DNA of 64,000 nt. Source: Nitrospirota bacterium (GTDB lineage: Bacteria; Nitrospirota; UBA9217). The notes under the pieces are model-generated. The model did no database searches and was not told where the DNA came from. It saw only the letters and a list, made by a program, of their open reading frames with translations. The translations under genes were made by a program, and so were the position numbers. This document shows, piece by piece, positions 47,913 through 54,885 of this stretch (its first letter is position 1; every line of letters begins with the position of its first letter). The stretch spans positions 1-64,000 of the forward strand of contig JAOUEV010000003.1 in assembly GCA_029858565.1 (NCBI GenBank), given 5' to 3'.

Positions 47913-48212
47913 ATTAGGCTGTATCGATCACCGTGCGGAATGCAAATAACACCTACAAGTGTGCAATATCAGTCGACTTACAATATCATCAGATACTGAT
48001 TGAAATTTGCAGATGAACGCACGGGTGAGACTCGCGTTTCTTGCGCATCAGATTTGATCCGCAGGTTGGGCGCTTATTCAGTGCGGATTTTTCTCTTATT
48101 TGTCGCTACTACAAGAAACAGAGATATGCCCAATGATAGTAATATATAGCCCATGGAGCAAAAACGCTGAAAAAACCAGTCCGTACTTGTTCAATCTGCT
48201 CTTGTACCCGTA
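47913..48212. other. Non-coding left margin of the accessory island
   Basis: Base composition drops in this stretch. It contains a TCCGCA/TGCGGA inverted pair near 48060-48090 but no tRNA, integrase or att-like direct repeat that I can find. No convincing ORF. Confidence 0.4.
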
Positions 48213-49904
48213 CTACTTGGCTAGCTTAATTAACAGCTCAGTCTCGCTTTCTGCCTTAAATTGCTTTTGTGACAAGTCAAGCCCTGATTTTTTAAAAATT
48301 GCAGTGCACTTGTTAAACAATGCTATACATTTGTTTTCATCGTTTAGTTCAGCAATAAACAAATCACAAAGGCTTTCGATTTTATTACTATTAAAAGGCG
48401 GCAAGTCCCTTCCAATAGACACTAGCCGTGCTAGCATCAACAGATGAAATCTTACTTTCTTAAATTCAGGATCAACAGAACCAGTTCTAAAATGTCCTTC
48501 TAGTTTATTAAAACATAAGGCGCTTGCGTAATATGGTGAATACTTGTGATCTGAACCAAATATTTTCCCCTTAAAGCTTTTGGCAATAGTTCCATAGTAA
48601 CCGCTAACGGCATGAGGAACACCAAGGAATACCGAGGCAAAAGACTTGATTTGAACGGGAATAGATATTATCTGAGTTTTTTTAATTCCGACTGCAGAAT
48701 GATACTGCTGTGATCGTCTTTCATAATACAATCGGCCCTCTCCCTTAATGGCATTGTAATATTGTTCTAACTTTTTCTGAAATTGTGTTAAGGCTTCAAG
48801 TTGTTCGGGTTTGACCTCTGTTTGACTGTTTGTTGCAAGCGTGATTTCATTTTTTATTTCTTCATCTTCCGTGACAACTATTTTTACCGGGACATTCACG
48901 CCGTTGATACCGTTAATATTTCTGCACTCATGCAATACATTGCTAGTCTGGCAACCGTTAACTACTTGATAGTCACGTAATGTGAACCTATTACCTGCTG
49001 GCGTTACAGACGAGGCAACTATTGTTATGCCGTTATTTAATACCGAGAAAATATCAAATTTGCCTGATTGGAGTGTTTCTTTGATTTTTCTATTCACGTC
49101 ATTATCGCCTTGGAAGTCTCTAACGTTGTCATCGAATATGCTATAAATTGTCTGATTTTCATCCTGCACAAGACTGATAAATTCAAGATAGGGAAGGATG
49201 CCAAGATAAGCTTCTTTTACTCCAGCAATATCTGGTAAAGTTATTCTGTTTTGGAAAGTAATTGTTGCTGACAACTTGTTGCGTGTTTCATGGTATAGCT
49301 TCTGTATTTCATTTGCACCTAAGGGGAAAAAAGAAACTTCATTAAAAAGCTCGCTATCGTCAACTTCTTTCTTCCCACCATTTACTATGGCTTTTAAATT
49401 CTGATCATTAGTCCACTTACCAGTTGTCACGTAAAATAACTTACAGTTAGGACGTCTATTGACCATATAAGCAGATTTGGCAATAATATGCTCCCAGATT
49501 TCTTTAAATGACTTCAATCTAGAATTATGAACAAGCTTTGATTGATCAGAAAGAAAATCTTTTACACCGAATACGAAGCTTCCGATTTCTGACCCTTCGA
49601 AACTAGAAGATGTCTTGGATTGTATAAAAACAATATCGCAGTCCAAGTATCCGCTTTCTGCGACAACATCATCCAACTCATCTATCTCAGTTACGAGTTT
49701 TCCATTCACGATTATCGCTAAGCCATCTATAGCAGCATCTCCTCCGCCCCCGGTAAATACGGAATCCAATTCGAAGGTTGTCCTATGCAACTTAGAAATA
49801 ACGGAAAAATTGACGAAGTTCTCGAACTGTTTGTCCTCGGCAAGCTTAACTAACTCATTATCGATCGAAAATGAGTCTAGCAGCGATCTTGTAATTTTGT
49901 CCAT
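48213..49904 (-). CDS. AIPR-family (abortive infection phage resistance) protein
   Basis: 563 aa, strikingly AT-rich against its neighbours. The C-terminal two-thirds matches AIPR: NVRDFQGDNDVNRKIKETL, FSVLNNGITIVA and YQVVNGCQTSNVL (about 255-325). The N-terminal part has GGDAAIDG and CDIVFIQSKTS (about 55-100), arranged like the D...(E/Q)xK core of PD-(D/E)xK nucleases. AIPR proteins occur in abortive-infection and restriction-linked defence; the exact mechanism is not settled. AAAGGAAGG precedes the ATG. A group II intron on the opposite strand lies between this gene and the RusA-like gene, which is upstream in transcription order. Confidence 0.82.
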   Translation of the reverse strand: MDKITRSLLDSFSIDNELVKLAEDKQFENFVNFSVISKLHRTTFELDSVFTGGGGDAAIDGLAIIVNGKLVTEIDELDDVVAESGYLDCDIVFIQSKTSSSFEGSEIGSFVFGVKDFLSDQSKLVHNSRLKSFKEIWEHIIAKSAYMVNRRPNCKLFYVTTGKWTNDQNLKAIVNGGKKEVDDSELFNEVSFFPLGANEIQKLYHETRNKLSATITFQNRITLPDIAGVKEAYLGILPYLEFISLVQDENQTIYSIFDDNVRDFQGDNDVNRKIKETLQSGKFDIFSVLNNGITIVASSVTPAGNRFTLRDYQVVNGCQTSNVLHECRNINGINGVNVPVKIVVTEDEEIKNEITLATNSQTEVKPEQLEALTQFQKKLEQYYNAIKGEGRLYYERRSQQYHSAVGIKKTQIISIPVQIKSFASVFLGVPHAVSGYYGTIAKSFKGKIFGSDHKYSPYYASALCFNKLEGHFRTGSVDPEFKKVRFHLLMLARLVSIGRDLPPFNSNKIESLCDLFIAELNDENKCIALFNKCTAIFKKSGLDLSQKQFKAESETELLIKLAK

Positions 49905-49940
49905 TTTGGTTCCTTCCTTTATTAAATAACGCGGATTTCA

Positions 49941-49964
49941 CACGCCGCGTAGCGCGTCGGCGTG
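49941..49964. other. Stem-loop at the 5' exon of the group II intron
   Basis: CACGCCG and CGGCGTG enclose a 10-base centre that itself can pair (CG...CG). It ends nine bases before the intron. Class C introns characteristically insert after such hairpins. Confidence 0.6.
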
Positions 49965-50526
49965 GAACGACTTGTGTACGCCCGGCACGGGCGTGAACTA
50001 ATGGGGTGCAAGTCCCCTGTACGAGAACCACAGTAGCACAAGTACCAGCCCAAGGCAAGGGCGGAAGGGCGACCGACCGTCCGAAGGAAGCCTACGGCAA
50101 ACGTGCGAGCCGACGAACAGAAACCGCATATAAGGCTCAGTCCCCGGGCGAGTCAGCACTACATGACGAAGCCCGCCGGTTCAGGGGATAGGGTAAATGC
50201 GGCGGTTGTGCACGGACAGTTCACGTTCTTATCCGGGGAGATCTGCACGCCATGCGATAGGACCGTCATGAGAGATTCCGGATCGGGCCAACCGGTATAA
50301 GGCCCCGGCGTATCAACGGCTGTCGCTTGATACGAGTCCCTCGGGAAACACGAAACAGACAGCATCTCATGATGATTCCCTATAGCGCCGTCTCTGGAAA
50401 CAGAGGCGGTGTGCGCGCAGAAGTCAGCAGACGGCATAGTACCCGGAATCCGCTCCGGGGAAGGCCAGAACGCGGAAAGGAGGAACGGCAGTCCATAAGC
50501 TTCGGCACGGTGATGAGTTCGTCAGG

Positions 50527-51834
50527 ATGAGCCGCGTCCGGGCGCGTTGTGGAACAAAGCCCCCTCAAATGACCACAGTGGAACAAGTAGTAAGCAGTGA
50601 GAACATGAAGCTCGCATGGCAACAGGTCAGGACGAACGCAGGAGCAGCCGGCATCGACGATATGTCGATTACGGACTATCCCGTCTTCGCCCGAGCCAAC
50701 TGGGCGCGGATCAAAGACTCTTTGCTGGACGGGACCTATGTTCCCGCTCCGGTCAAAAGGGTCGAAATCCCCAAAGACAACGGGGGAACCAGGCCACTCG
50801 GTATCCCCACGGTCTCCGATCGCGTGATCCAGCAGGCGATCACCCAGATACTCGTCCCCGTTTTCGATCCTCAGTTCTCGGAGTCGAGCTATGGATTCAG
50901 GCCAGGCCGTTCGGCGCACCAGGCGGTAAAGAAGGTGGTTGAGTCGATCAACCAAGGATACCATTACGCCGTGGACATCGACCTTGCCAAGTTCTTCGAC
51001 ACGGTCGATCACGATGTGCTGATGCAGAGAGTCAGCCGTCGGGTAACGGACAAAGGCATTCTGAAGTTGATCGGCAAGTACCTTCGGGCCGGGGTGGTCG
51101 TAAACGGAAGGCTGAACCAGACATCCAAAGGAGTGCCGCAGGGCGGGCCGTTATCACCGCTCTTGAGTAATATCCTTTTGGACGATCTCGACAAAGAACT
51201 GGAGAAGCGAGGGCATCGGTTCTGCCGATACGCCGACGACCTCATCGTTCTGGTGAAGTCCAAGCGCAGCGGAGAGCGCGTGATGGAGAGCATCAGCCGG
51301 TTCCTTGAAAAGAAGCTCAAGGTGCAGGTCAACCGAGACAAGAGTCGAGTGGTGCGGTCCGAGAAGAGCACCTTTCTCGGGTTCACATTCACCGGCAGGA
51401 GACTGACGGTCTCGGAAAAGTCCCTCACGCGCTGCAAGAACGAGCTGCGCCGCCTTACGTGGCGCAGTTGGGGCGTTGCCATGGAATACCGGTACCGGAA
51501 AATCCGCACCTACGTGCAGGGGTGGATGAACTATTTCGGTATCGGGATGAGGTACAAGACCGCCAACGAGTGGGATCAATGGTTCCGCCGCCGCGTTCGG
51601 ATGTGCTACTGGAAACAGTGGCGCAAGACGAGGACGCGGGTCAGGGAAATGATGAAACTCGGGGTCGGTGAGCGGCACGCGGTCAAGGCCGGGATGAGCA
51701 GGAAAGCGTACTGGCATCTTGCGAAGACCGAGGCCTTGAACGTGGCATTGTCCAATCGCTATCTCAAAGAGCAGGGACTCACGTCGCTACGAACACTGTG
51801 GATCAAGATACACCACCCGGCCACGGCCCGGTGA
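50527..51834 (+). CDS. ltrA: Group II intron reverse transcriptase/maturase
   Basis: 435 aa (ATG 50569 would give 421). The finger/palm RT has GTRPLGIPTVSDRVIQQAI, SSYGFRPGRSAHQAV, the VDIDLAKFFDTVDHD motif, GVPQGGPLSPLLSNI and catalytic CRYADDLIVL (about 238). Then comes the thumb/X maturase domain (about 300-400; YVQGWMNYFG, WFRRRVRMCYWKQW). There is no C-terminal HNH endonuclease, as expected for class C introns that use nicked or single-stranded targets. The ORF looks intact, so the intron may still be mobile. Confidence 0.95.
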   Translation: MSRVRARCGTKPPQMTTVEQVVSSENMKLAWQQVRTNAGAAGIDDMSITDYPVFARANWARIKDSLLDGTYVPAPVKRVEIPKDNGGTRPLGIPTVSDRVIQQAITQILVPVFDPQFSESSYGFRPGRSAHQAVKKVVESINQGYHYAVDIDLAKFFDTVDHDVLMQRVSRRVTDKGILKLIGKYLRAGVVVNGRLNQTSKGVPQGGPLSPLLSNILLDDLDKELEKRGHRFCRYADDLIVLVKSKRSGERVMESISRFLEKKLKVQVNRDKSRVVRSEKSTFLGFTFTGRRLTVSEKSLTRCKNELRRLTWRSWGVAMEYRYRKIRTYVQGWMNYFGIGMRYKTANEWDQWFRRRVRMCYWKQWRKTRTRVREMMKLGVGERHAVKAGMSRKAYWHLAKTEALNVALSNRYLKEQGLTSLRTLWIKIHHPATAR

Positions 51835-51842
51835 TTTCCGCG

Positions 51843-51875
51843 AACCGCCTAGTGCGTACCCGCATGCTAGGTGGT
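51843..51875 (+). ncRNA. Domain V catalytic hairpin of the group II intron
   Basis: ACCGCCTAG pairs with CTAGGTGGT (one G-U), TGCG with CGCA, with loop TACC and the canonical two-base bulge (TG) on the 3' side. CGC near the 5' base could be the catalytic triad, as in class C introns. Confidence 0.75.
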
Positions 51876-51927
51876 GTGGGGGCTGGGGGAGAGAATCCCC
51901 CGGCTACCCGATTGGAATTCTGCATTA

Positions 51928-52482
51928 TCAAGAGAAAGCAAAATTACCCATTGTTTGGCGAGTGACATTTGTAGTCACATTAATAAACAGATCCACATGA
52001 GTCGAATCTACATTTGGCTCGAGTAACTGTTCGGTTCTAACTGCAACAGCAGTTACCAAGTTGTCGTCTTCCAACAAGCAAAAAAATGGATTTTCATCCG
52101 TAGTCGGGCTTGACTCTCGTGGTAGGGCATTTTCATGCCGCGGCATTGTTAAAGCGTCAAATAGGGTCTTTAGTCTATTATCAATATCTCCACCCTGCGT
52201 AATTAAATGCCCCGGTGATTCAGGTCGCAGAAGTGTTATGGAAAGCTCAGCAACAACGTTCATTTCATTTGTAATAAGAGGCGCAAAGATAAAAGAACCT
52301 AGTGGACGAAGCAGGGAATACTCACCTGTTCTCCTTTCACCAAGCAATCCTGGTTGATCAGAAAGAGGTGCTTGTTTCCACAGCGTTGCAAGCTGTTGAT
52401 GGAAATGCCTACGCAGATCGTGCTTGTGATCTGGCTTGCCATTTGCGTTCAACTTACCACGATAGTGCAGTACAAGTTTCAT
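51928..52482 (-). CDS. RusA-like putative nuclease
   Basis: 184 aa. GGDIDNRLKTLFDAL (about 96-110) and CLLEDDNLVT (about 135-145) resemble the D-x-DN-x2-K and DD motifs that supply metal-binding aspartates in RusA Holliday-junction resolvases. The rest does not match RusA closely; it agrees better with a larger uncharacterised family in accessory regions. If active it would cut branched or structured DNA. It lies upstream (minus strand) of the intron and the AIPR gene. Spacing to the HEPN-like gene upstream is 72 bp, so a shared transcript is possible. Confidence 0.55.
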   Translation of the reverse strand: MKLVLHYRGKLNANGKPDHKHDLRRHFHQQLATLWKQAPLSDQPGLLGERRTGEYSLLRPLGSFIFAPLITNEMNVVAELSITLLRPESPGHLITQGGDIDNRLKTLFDALTMPRHENALPRESSPTTDENPFFCLLEDDNLVTAVAVRTEQLLEPNVDSTHVDLFINVTTNVTRQTMGNFAFS

Positions 52483-52554
52483 TGTTTATTTCTCTCAAAC
52501 AAAATCGCCTGACGCGGTTCGGGCAATGCACTGATGCTGTGTTTGCTGGTAACT

Positions 52555-53310
52555 TTATATGCCATGCATAATTCTTGACCAGTCAATGGCTTTGCCCTGA
52601 TCACGATAGCTATATCCTGTACCCGTGTATCCGCAGTCTTCACGTTGAATTACATCATGGAGCTGATGTAGAAGTTCCACATGAGCTTTGTAGAACTTGT
52701 CAAAATCTCTGTCATCTAAGATTACCGGGCATGGCTTAGTCTGGTCAGCTTTCCATTCAACATAGTCTTTATGCAGATCAAACTTTCCGCGTATCGGAAG
52801 TGCGGTGGTCTCGTATTTCGAATTGTACAATCCGTTGTTGTGAAGATAGCAATTCCGAAACCGTCTAACGTGGTCAACGTCTCTCCTGTTTTGATCTAAA
52901 CGTGCCAACATGCCCTGCGACCCGTATGTTGTTTTAGTCAGTCTGTCAAAAGCCCAGTCTAGCCGTGGCTTGTAATCGGGATTGCTGCCCTTTGCTTGAT
53001 GAATATTTCTAGACTCCAATAGCTCCCAGAAATCGGCAAGGACGCCTTCGAATATCGCTGCAATTGCAATAAGGCAACTGCGGACATGGTAGTATGGGAA
53101 AGTACTTCTCATCACGGCCACTAGGGCAACGGGGTCATAAGCTCTACTCCAATCATTCGTCATTGGATGAAGAGGAGGCAATTTAGACACAAGGTCACTA
53201 TCTTTGGTGCAACTATAGGAGGCTGCGGCAAACGCAAAATAAGCCCAAACGCCATGAAGCGCATCATCCGCTCTTTCAAATAAAACTTGGGCATCTGGGT
53301 CGAAATCCAT
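52555..53310 (-). CDS. HEPN-like hypothetical protein
   Basis: 251 aa, helical, with no signal or TM. VRRFRNCYLHNNG (about 152-164) contains R-x4-H, the ribonuclease motif of HEPN domains, preceded by a helix pair (CLIAIAAIFEGVLADFWELL). HEPN proteins are common RNases in toxin-antitoxin and anti-phage systems. The assignment rests on this motif and helical pattern only. An unclear alternative is a structural hypothetical protein. It is coded with the RusA-like gene downstream; an MNT-type antitoxin partner was not seen nearby. Confidence 0.5.
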   Translation of the reverse strand: MDFDPDAQVLFERADDALHGVWAYFAFAAASYSCTKDSDLVSKLPPLHPMTNDWSRAYDPVALVAVMRSTFPYYHVRSCLIAIAAIFEGVLADFWELLESRNIHQAKGSNPDYKPRLDWAFDRLTKTTYGSQGMLARLDQNRRDVDHVRRFRNCYLHNNGLYNSKYETTALPIRGKFDLHKDYVEWKADQTKPCPVILDDRDFDKFYKAHVELLHQLHDVIQREDCGYTGTGYSYRDQGKAIDWSRIMHGI

Positions 53311-53330
53311 ATCTCACCCTCATCAAAACG

Positions 53331-53602
53331 GACTAATACGCGCCTGACGCGCCGCCTTCAGTTCGTCGCCGTCGAGGCGCTGGTTGTGATTAGTCGTAGG
53401 TTGGGCTGAGTTACACGAAGCCCAACACTCCTATTCGCGACCCTATCGCAGCTTCCAGTCAGGCAGGGTAAAAGCTTACCCTGCCCACAATTTCTCGAAC
53501 ATGATTCGTTGGGCTTCACACGAACCGTTCAGCACAACCTACGACTGATGCACTCAATAATCAATCACGTCGGATTTCGCCTGGCTCTATCCGACCTACG
53601 AC
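53331..53602. repeat. Composite REP-like palindromic cluster
   Basis: Three nested or adjacent hairpins fill the gap. GACTAAT/ATTAGTC arms span 53331-53395. TCGTAGGTTGGGC...AAGCCCAAC units sit inverted at 53394 and 53508-53544, around GGCAGGGTAA/TTACCCTGCC. GTCGGAT/ATCCGAC lies at 53569-53595. The final CTACGAC runs into the neighbouring gene and supplies its stop codon (TAG). Confidence 0.7.
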
Positions 53603-54603
53603 TGGTCAATATTATCTTCCAAGTAGGTTTTGATGATTTCTTTTTTTGAAATCGGCCTCACTTGGCCTCTTTCAATAATAATGTCCATTTTTACGTGGCT
53701 GACTCCAACAGTTTCCTTCCAAGGCAATTCGAAAGTCTCACTAGTTTCCGGATTTTCAAAACGACACTTGTCTCCCGAGATCCCATTTATCATACGGAGC
53801 CAGCTAATCACATTATTGATGGATGCTGATATCAGTAGAAGCCCATTGGCTAAATTGACTGGGTTCCAGTTATGCGCGTGCCTGCTTGGTCGGAAATTAT
53901 ACTTGTCGCTCGGGTCAATACGATCCGGAACAAAGTATGACGACCCATACAGACTACTTCCTATCAATTCCATTTTTTCTGGTGCTGCCGGGACACCCGG
54001 TTTATCTTCTATTCCAAATGCTAGATGAAAGCCACCTGGCCTCACTCGGAATCCATGTTTTAATCCGTTATATTCTAAAATCATATCGGCATTGACAAAA
54101 TCACTTGCAAAGTGTCGCCATAACCTCCCAAACCCAGATTGAATCCATTCTTTCTTTTCTTCATCATATTTAAGATAGGTGTGGACAAGCTTAGCCAAAT
54201 ACTCCCACGTAACCGGCCGGTCCTTCATTCTTGTATAAATTGATTTATCAAGTGATATTTTTCTGACAAGATCCACAAGATCATTATTTCGATAGCAGAG
54301 AATCCATCCAAGCGAGCACTGAGGGGCCTGTACTGCTGAACAGAGTAACGCGAATAGAGTTTCCAAACCATGGTAATAGGCAAGTCGCAACGACAAAGCC
54401 GCCTTTTGTTTGTCTGCCCCTTCCAGATGATCTGACTGCGTCCTTACAATATAGTCGAAATAATCGGGTTCGAATCCTTCAAGAAACTCTAGATTCTTTT
54501 TCACCAATTCCATATCCCAAAAGGCAAAAGGTGTTTCATTGACTACAAACCTAATCACTTCCATAATCATATTCCTCGTAGAGTCTGATAACGGGGTAGC
54601 CAT
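53596..54603 (-). CDS. Hypothetical protein of the accessory island
   Basis: 335 aa, soluble, mixed helical N-terminal half (SLRLAYYHGLETLFALLCSA) and a segment EYNGLKHGFRVRPGG (about 184-198). The [N/Y]xLKHG pattern is seen in some HEPN-like proteins, but this is weak. I do not recognise the family. The ATG at 54603 lacks a ribosome site; internal Met codons at 54567 and 54561 are alternatives. It is AT-rich like the island and is transcribed towards the HEPN-like and RusA-like genes. Confidence 0.6.
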   Translation of the reverse strand: MATPLSDSTRNMIMEVIRFVVNETPFAFWDMELVKKNLEFLEGFEPDYFDYIVRTQSDHLEGADKQKAALSLRLAYYHGLETLFALLCSAVQAPQCSLGWILCYRNNDLVDLVRKISLDKSIYTRMKDRPVTWEYLAKLVHTYLKYDEEKKEWIQSGFGRLWRHFASDFVNADMILEYNGLKHGFRVRPGGFHLAFGIEDKPGVPAAPEKMELIGSSLYGSSYFVPDRIDPSDKYNFRPSRHAHNWNPVNLANGLLLISASINNVISWLRMINGISGDKCRFENPETSETFELPWKETVGVSHVKMDIIIERGQVRPISKKEIIKTYLEDNIDQS

Positions 54604-54885
54604 GGGATCGCTTTTTGATAGGCTAATTCCGGGACGTTGATGCTTTTAATGCATTGCGACCAAAATTACGGAATGTAATCTGTATCAGCCTATCACGTTC
54701 GTCCGCTGTAGCTTACAGGAAGTTATCTTGGTTAGTGGTTCGCGACGGTTAGGAGTATATCAGAAACCTACGAACGGATAAAGCGAAATAATGGGAGTAT
54801 GCCGGGACTTCGGTCACGATCGGAGAGCTTGCATAAACGTTGAGCGCGGACTGCGGACGGTCGGGCAGGGACTGCGATTTAGCTC
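54604..54885. other. Non-coding right margin of the accessory island
   Basis: No gene, tRNA or integrase visible. Composition returns to host-like GC in its last 100 bases. No direct repeat matching the left margin was noticed. Confidence 0.4.

What the first reader, a model, noticed from the sequence alone, without database searches (positions are those of the whole stretch)
47913..54885. AT-rich minus-strand island: AIPR, RusA-like, HEPN-like and an unknown protein as a candidate defence system
Four minus-strand genes lie between secA and a nitrilase gene, all with lower GC and different codon use from the flanks. Seen: AIPR motifs with an N-terminal nuclease-like D...QxK; a RusA-like pair of aspartate motifs; an R-x4-H HEPN motif; and an unknown 335-aa protein. 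Known: AIPR and HEPN are recurrent in abortive infection. Inferred: the set could be a multi-gene anti-phage module, with HEPN RNase and nuclease effectors. The combination with a RusA-like nuclease is not one I can name.
Basis: partly seen in the sequence, partly recalled or inferred. Interest (0 to 1): 0.75.

Follow-up and report, generated by a model that had tools for sequence, protein, structure and literature searches.

The report
Integron cassette array with defence genes
The four AT-rich genes are not one anti-phage machine but separate mobile gene cassettes captured by an integron (one carries a known type of anti-phage gene), and a self-splicing group II intron has landed in one of the cassettes' recombination sites.

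Summary
The island is real and foreign: 37-46% GC genes in a 58.6% GC window, and absent from the secA-nitrilase junction in two related genomes. (1) A complete group IIC intron (49976-51912, + strand) lies between the RusA-like and AIPR genes. (2) It sits at TTGT/T inside an integron attC site. (3) An attC model trained only on sites beside integron integrases of the same bacterial family finds exactly three significant sites in the 64 kb window, all on the genes' strand, one after each of three transcription units (E = 2e-6, 8e-5, 6e-4; next best 0.56). The genome carries two intact integron integrases elsewhere. The island is therefore a CALIN, a cassette array without its own integrase: [unknown 335-aa gene], [HEPN-like + RusA-like], [AIPR/AbiU]. 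The four genes do not co-occur elsewhere, so "one multi-gene defence module" is not supported. AIPR is a solid AbiU-type protein with a conserved D...QxK motif. RusA-like is supported by fold and active-site residues. HEPN is unproven (Rx4H alone occurs in 54% of shuffles). Integron-borne defence genes and IIC-attC introns are both known, so this is a new member of a known kind; the HEPN-like/RusA-like cassette is the only candidate for something new.

The parts
53596..54603 (-). Cassette 1: unknown 335-aa protein
   Evidence: ORF; no hit in four family libraries apart from a weak NCBIfam match at E=0.15; one relative, 34% identity over 97%, on a Deinococcus radiophilus plasmid next to an MmeI-type methylase
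53331..53389 (-). attC site after cassette 1
   Evidence: R2 model 28.3 bits, E=8.3e-5 over the whole 64 kb window, filters off; R1 23.6 bits
52555..53310 (-). Cassette 2, gene 1: 251-aa HEPN-like protein (RNCYLH motif; fold unproven)
   Evidence: ORF; no relatives in plasmids, phages, viral contigs, 60 related genomes or 399 Pseudomonadota
51928..52482 (-). Cassette 2, gene 2: 184-aa RusA-like nuclease (D99, D101, K105, D139/D140)
   Evidence: Conserved residues; model pLDDT 86; best PDB match E. coli RusA 2h8c E=9.5e-4, 1q8r second; best viral-structure matches include phage RusA proteins
51913..51919 (-). attC R'' end of cassette 2, in the 3' exon of the intron
   Evidence: Joining the exons gives CCAACAAGTCGTTC across the junction, identical to an attC of the same genome's integron, L073:5450-5508
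49976..51912 (+). Group IIC intron inserted at TTGT/T in the attC, opposite to the cassette genes
   Evidence: Rfam RF02001 50063-50227, RF01998 50386-50466, RF00029 51843-51912; a single full copy in the genome; 5' boundary read by eye from the attC join
50527..51834 (+). Intron-encoded reverse transcriptase/maturase, class IIC
   Evidence: TIGR04416 2e-126; best PDB matches GsI-IIC RT 457 bits and 7uim 373 bits, against LtrA 162 and 6me0 126
49924..49975 (-). Rest of the cassette-2 attC (L'', L', R'), in the 5' exon of the intron
   Evidence: R2 34.5 bits, E=2e-6 even though the intron has cut off its R'' box; 87% identical over 54 nt to an attC about 1.2 kb from an intI gene in G009
48213..49904 (-). 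Cassette 3: AIPR / AbiU-type abortive infection protein, 563 aa
   Evidence: PADLOC AbiU 5.5e-136 over residues 2-556; PF10592; phrog_1841 7e-101; E28/D60/QxK invariant
48012..48071 (-). attC site after cassette 3
   Evidence: R2 25.1 bits, E=5.9e-4; weaker with R1, E=0.86

Best explanation
The island is a short integron cassette array without its own integrase (a CALIN), inserted between secA and a nitrilase gene and read on the minus strand. Each unit is a gene or gene pair followed by an attC recombination site: [335-aa unknown]-attC, [HEPN-like + RusA-like]-attC, [AIPR/AbiU]-attC. Integrases encoded elsewhere in this genome could have placed and moved them (inferred). A group IIC intron then retrotransposed into the folded bottom strand of the middle attC, splitting its R'' box, which probably impairs excision of that cassette (inferred). 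AIPR most likely acts alone as an AbiU-type abortive-infection protein, using an N-terminal PD-(D/E)xK-like nuclease (motif shown, activity inferred). The RusA-like protein is probably a structure-selective DNA nuclease. With its HEPN-like neighbour it may form a two-gene defence or toxin-antitoxin cassette (speculative).
For: attC model R2 was built from 14 sites found beside intI genes or in a cassette region of the same family, with no window site used. It gives exactly three significant hits in 64 kb, all minus strand, each after one of the units; the fourth best is E=0.56. The training sites fall between ORFs in line with intI. Two intact integron integrases over the curated cut-off are in this genome, C137 and C128. 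The intron lies at TTGT/T of the attC bottom strand, opposite to the genes, as reported for group IIC-attC introns (PMC7923331), and its RT is closest to class IIC enzymes. secA and nitrilase are adjacent in G003 and G016. Among eight held-out RusA-like loci (90 kb) the top three attC hits all lie beside the RusA gene: L008 6 nt after its stop, L011 and L004. Integrons carrying anti-phage genes are reported by Darracq 2025, Getz 2025 and Kieffer 2025, as cited in PMC12444791.
Against: The R''/R' boxes of the window attC sites are degenerate, and the third site was weak (E=0.86) with the smaller model. No integrase was listed on the window's contig. AIPR relatives on plasmids show no attC, so that family is not generally cassette-borne. 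Most RusA-like relatives also lack a detectable attC, although the model is lineage-specific.
Confidence: 0.87

Rival explanations
1. The four genes are one co-inherited multi-gene anti-phage operon with HEPN RNase and nuclease effectors.
For: Same strand and similar low GC. With the intron removed, gaps are 72 and 86 nt between HEPN-like, RusA-like and AIPR.
Against: attC sites lie between the units. No two of the four genes co-occur in any other locus found. RusA-like genes sit beside polA and other unrelated host genes. AIPR relatives sit alone beside mobile elements.
Confidence: 0.05
2. HEPN-like and RusA-like form a genuine two-gene defence or toxin-antitoxin system, transferred as one cassette. 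This is compatible with the best explanation.
For: They share one cassette: 72 bp gap, no attC between, one attC after RusA-like. A different Rx4H-containing 266-aa gene lies about 50 bp upstream of a RusA-like gene in L010. RusA-like neighbours in the Nitrosococcus plasmid include a CAP12/Pycsar TIR gene and a sub-threshold Mrr-like match.
Against: No relative of the HEPN-like protein is known. Nearly all other RusA-like genes have no such partner. Fused cassettes can arise when an attC is lost.
Confidence: 0.25
3. The island is an ordinary transposon, prophage or plasmid remnant, and the attC-like hairpins are chance or repeats.
For: The spacer 53311-53595 holds other inverted repeats.
Against: No phage or plasmid core genes were found among the island's ORFs. 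Three hairpins match family attC sites at E<1e-3 in the right places and strand, with the rest of the 64 kb as a negative control. The class IIC intron is at the exact attC target.
Confidence: 0.08

Closest known systems
CALIN / sedentary chromosomal integron cassette arrays carrying anti-phage genes (Darracq 2025, Getz 2025 and Kieffer 2025, cited in PMC12444791)
   Same: ORF-attC units on one strand, at least one unit matching a known defence family, integrases elsewhere in the genome
   Different: Short, no adjacent integrase, in a non-Vibrio lineage; no defence activity tested
Group IIC-attC introns (PMC7923331 and references therein)
   Same: TTGT/T insertion in the attC bottom strand, opposite to the cassette genes; class IIC RT
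   Different: No clear difference seen; only one full copy in this genome
AbiU (PADLOC) / AIPR family abortive infection protein
   Same: Full-length match 5.5e-136; invariant D...QxK
   Different: Sits in an attC-flanked cassette; five plasmid relatives checked do not
RusA Holliday-junction resolvase (Pfam PF05866; PDB 2h8c, 1q8r)
   Same: DxDxxxK ... D motif order and best structural match
   Different: 184 aa with a conserved N-terminal stretch (HKH...R...HxQLxxLW); sequence profile only E=0.12, below the Pfam cut-off; low TM-score (0.3-0.5)
HEPN RNases, including the integron cassette HEPN (PDB 3jrt; PMC3710099)
   Same: RN-x3-H motif; integron context
   Different: No detectable sequence similarity; fold not demonstrated

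Membership tests
Integron cassette array without integrase (CALIN) | Two or more attC sites in line with ORFs | tested here: met
   Three sites at E=2e-6, 8e-5 and 6e-4 in the window, all on the gene strand
Integron cassette array without integrase (CALIN) | No integron integrase beside it | tested here: met
   No TIGR02249 match listed on contig C62; two intact ones on C137 and C128
Integron cassette array without integrase (CALIN) | attC sites are recombined by IntI | not testable with these tools
   Needs a recombination assay
Group IIC-attC intron | Catalytic intron RNA domains present | tested here: met
   RF02001, RF01998 and RF00029 ending at 51912
Group IIC-attC intron | Class IIC RT | tested here: met
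   GsI-IIC RT 457 bits against 162 (LtrA) and 126 (6me0); no tree with the attC lineage was made
Group IIC-attC intron | Insertion at TTGT/T in attC bottom strand, antisense to cassettes | tested here: met
   Exon join; rule from PMC7923331
AbiU / AIPR | Full-length profile match | tested here: met
   PADLOC 2-556 of 563, 5.5e-136; PF10592 over cut-off
AbiU / AIPR | Phage protection | not testable with these tools
   Needs a plaque assay
RusA | Profile match over Pfam cut-off | tested here: not met
   PF05866 13.4 bits, cut-off 22.8; hence called RusA-like, not RusA
RusA | Active-site DxDxxxK ... D | tested here: met
   Invariant in nine homologues; compared with RusA D70/D72/K76/D91 from general knowledge
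RusA | RusA fold | tested here: met
   Foldseek top PDB hits 2h8c and 1q8r, E=9.5e-4 and 1.2e-2; top viral-structure hits include phage RusA proteins; TM-scores are low
HEPN | Rx4-6H motif with polar residue after R | tested here: inconclusive
   RNCYLH present, but 12% of shuffles also have R[NDH]x3H; rule from PMC3710099
HEPN | Four-helix HEPN fold | tested here: inconclusive
   Single-sequence model pLDDT 43, unusable

The most novel reading that the evidence does not exclude
The HEPN-like + RusA-like cassette is a new two-gene anti-phage system in which a DNA-junction nuclease of an uncharacterised, integron-travelling RusA-like family is paired with an RNase; the intron in its attC would then have fixed it in the chromosome by blocking excision.
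Probability: 0.18. Interest if true: 0.65.

Novelty: new member of a known kind. Interest (0 to 1): 0.42.

Why it matters
It shows how a plausible multi-gene defence island can be a set of independent cassettes, and it gives a test (attC sites between genes) that should be run before neighbouring genes are called one system. It also adds a case of AbiU-type defence inside an integron array outside Vibrio. It nominates an uncharacterised RusA-like family, found in about 1% of genomes sampled in two phyla, as a candidate defence nuclease.

Tried and rejected
Rejected: the idea that RusA-like is a conserved partner of swappable upstream genes. The upstream genes are unrelated host genes (polA, a PQQ-repeat protein, a polysaccharide-synthesis gene) or shadow ORFs. 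Rejected: the L013 'fusion', whose N-terminal part appears to be a shadow frame (by eye). Failed: finding relatives of the HEPN-like protein and modelling it. Failed: a hand-written attC pattern scan that missed known sites; replaced by covariance models. Rejected: a secA-nitrilase defence hot spot. The 10 kb between them in G007 holds ordinary sensor kinases and response regulators. The 335-aa protein could not be placed.
Full report
WHAT IS THERE. Their GC is 37.4, 43.4, 45.6 and 41.9%, against about 60% in the flanking genes and 58.6% for the window. In related genomes G003 and G016 the secA and nitrilase genes lie about 190 bp and a few bp apart, so the island is an insertion. G007 has other, host-like genes between them. 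No relative of the 251-aa or 335-aa protein was found in 60 related genomes.

Between the RusA-like gene and AIPR lies a + strand group II intron with its reverse transcriptase/maturase at 50527-51834 (TIGR04416 2e-126). Catalytic domains match Rfam at 50063-50227 and 50386-50466 and at 51843-51912 (RF00029), which fixes the 3' end. The RT is closest to class IIC enzymes: 457 bits for GsI-IIC RT and 373 for 7uim, against 162 for LtrA and 126 for 6me0 (the class of 7uim is from general knowledge). It is the only full copy in the genome.

THE INTRON SITS IN AN attC SITE. The 44 nt before the intron are 93% identical to a site in G007 and, over 54 nt, 87% identical to a site in G009 about 1.2 kb from an integron integrase gene. 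Joining the two exons on the gene strand reads TTCCAACAAGTCGTTCCACGCCGACGCGCTACGCGGCGTGTGAAATCCGCGTTATTT. CCAACAAGTCGTTC, which crosses the junction, is identical to part of an attC in this genome's own integron (L073:5450-5508). The insertion is at TTGT/T on the bottom strand, opposite to the cassette genes. That is the published rule for group IIC-attC introns (PMC7923331).

OTHER attC SITES. I built covariance models only from attC sites of the same bacterial family, nearly all next to intI genes: R1 from 8 sites and R2 from 14. R1 on the whole window, both strands, no filters, gave 6.8e-6, 0.0018, 0.33 (inside a coding gene) and 0.86. R2 gave 49980-49924 at 2e-6, 53389-53331 at 8.3e-5 and 48071-48012 at 5.9e-4, then a gap to 0.56. 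All three are on the minus strand and follow the RusA-like gene, the 335-aa gene and AIPR. The rest of the window served as a negative control. The training sites lie between ORFs in line with intI. The genome has two intact integron integrases over the curated cut-off, on other contigs. So the island is a CALIN with three cassettes, the middle one holding two genes. The third site rests mainly on R2 and is the weakest. Infernal E-values here are rough (short calibration).

THE PROTEINS. AIPR: PADLOC AbiU 5.5e-136 over nearly the full length, PF10592 1e-45, phrog_1841 7e-101. Relatives on plasmids are single genes, mostly beside recombinases and transposases. RusA-like: the Pfam RusA match is below cut-off (E=0.12), but D99xD101xxxK105 and EDD are invariant in nine relatives. 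A model with pLDDT 86 has E. coli RusA structures as its two best PDB matches and phage RusA proteins among its best viral matches. There are no relatives, no profile hit and no usable model. The label stays a guess. The 335-aa protein has one relative, next to an MmeI-type methylase on a Deinococcus plasmid.

DO THE FOUR GENES BELONG TOGETHER? No. In the RusA-like loci from genomes and plasmids none of the three other genes appears, and in these and in five further loci from about 800 sampled genomes the neighbours are unrelated genes. In held-out RusA-like loci the three best attC hits in 90 kb are beside the RusA gene: 6 nt after its stop in L008 (E=0.01), about 140 nt beyond it on the other strand in L011 (0.054), and just upstream in L004 (0.43). 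This suggests the RusA-like gene itself travels as a cassette in several lineages. The evidence is moderate, and other loci showed nothing.

MECHANISM. Shown: island insertion, attC sites, intron class and target, AbiU-type protein, RusA-like fold and residues. Inferred: integrases encoded elsewhere in the genome placed the cassettes; the intron, by splitting R'', impairs excision of the middle cassette; AIPR is a stand-alone abortive-infection nuclease. Speculative: HEPN-like and RusA-like act together.

NOVELTY. Integron arrays carrying anti-phage genes are known (references cited in PMC12444791), a HEPN family in integron cassettes was described in 2013 (PMC3710099), and IIC-attC introns are known (PMC7923331). 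This is a new member of a known kind, with one uncharacterised gene pair worth testing.

Noticed in passing
L010:6629-6884: A group II intron (RF02005) also begins just downstream of a RusA-like gene in an unrelated Pseudomonadota MAG, whose upstream neighbour is a 266-aa protein with RSTYIH (Rx4H). No attC was recognised there.
   Followed up: partly
window 53420-53514: A perfect GCCCAAC...GTTGGGC pair enclosing a strong hairpin in the spacer between the 335-aa gene and HEPN-like; possibly a second, degenerate attC or a repeat. Not found by the attC models.
   Followed up: partly
window 53389-53549: Inverted copies of GTAGGTTGGGCTGA / TCAGCACAACCTAC (90% complementary), resembling dispersed proteobacterial repeats.
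   Followed up: no
L004:6396-12233: Nitrosococcus halophilus plasmid: RusA-like gene in a run of same-strand genes with a sub-threshold Mrr-like match, a CAP12/Pycsar TIR protein and an HNH gene, with an attC-like site upstream; possibly another defence cassette array.
   Followed up: partly
L036:1541-1597: G007 has an attC site without a nearby integrase about 2.5 kb beyond its nitrilase gene, on the other side from secA.
   Followed up: no
L073 (G000 contig C128) and L072 (C137): Two intact integron integrases with short cassette arrays in the window's own genome; the cassette proteins were not annotated.
   Followed up: no
L106:4063-6101: RusA-like gene in a same-phylum genome flanked on the same strand by two small unknown genes (210 and 225 aa), possibly another cassette-like group; no attC detected.
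   Followed up: no
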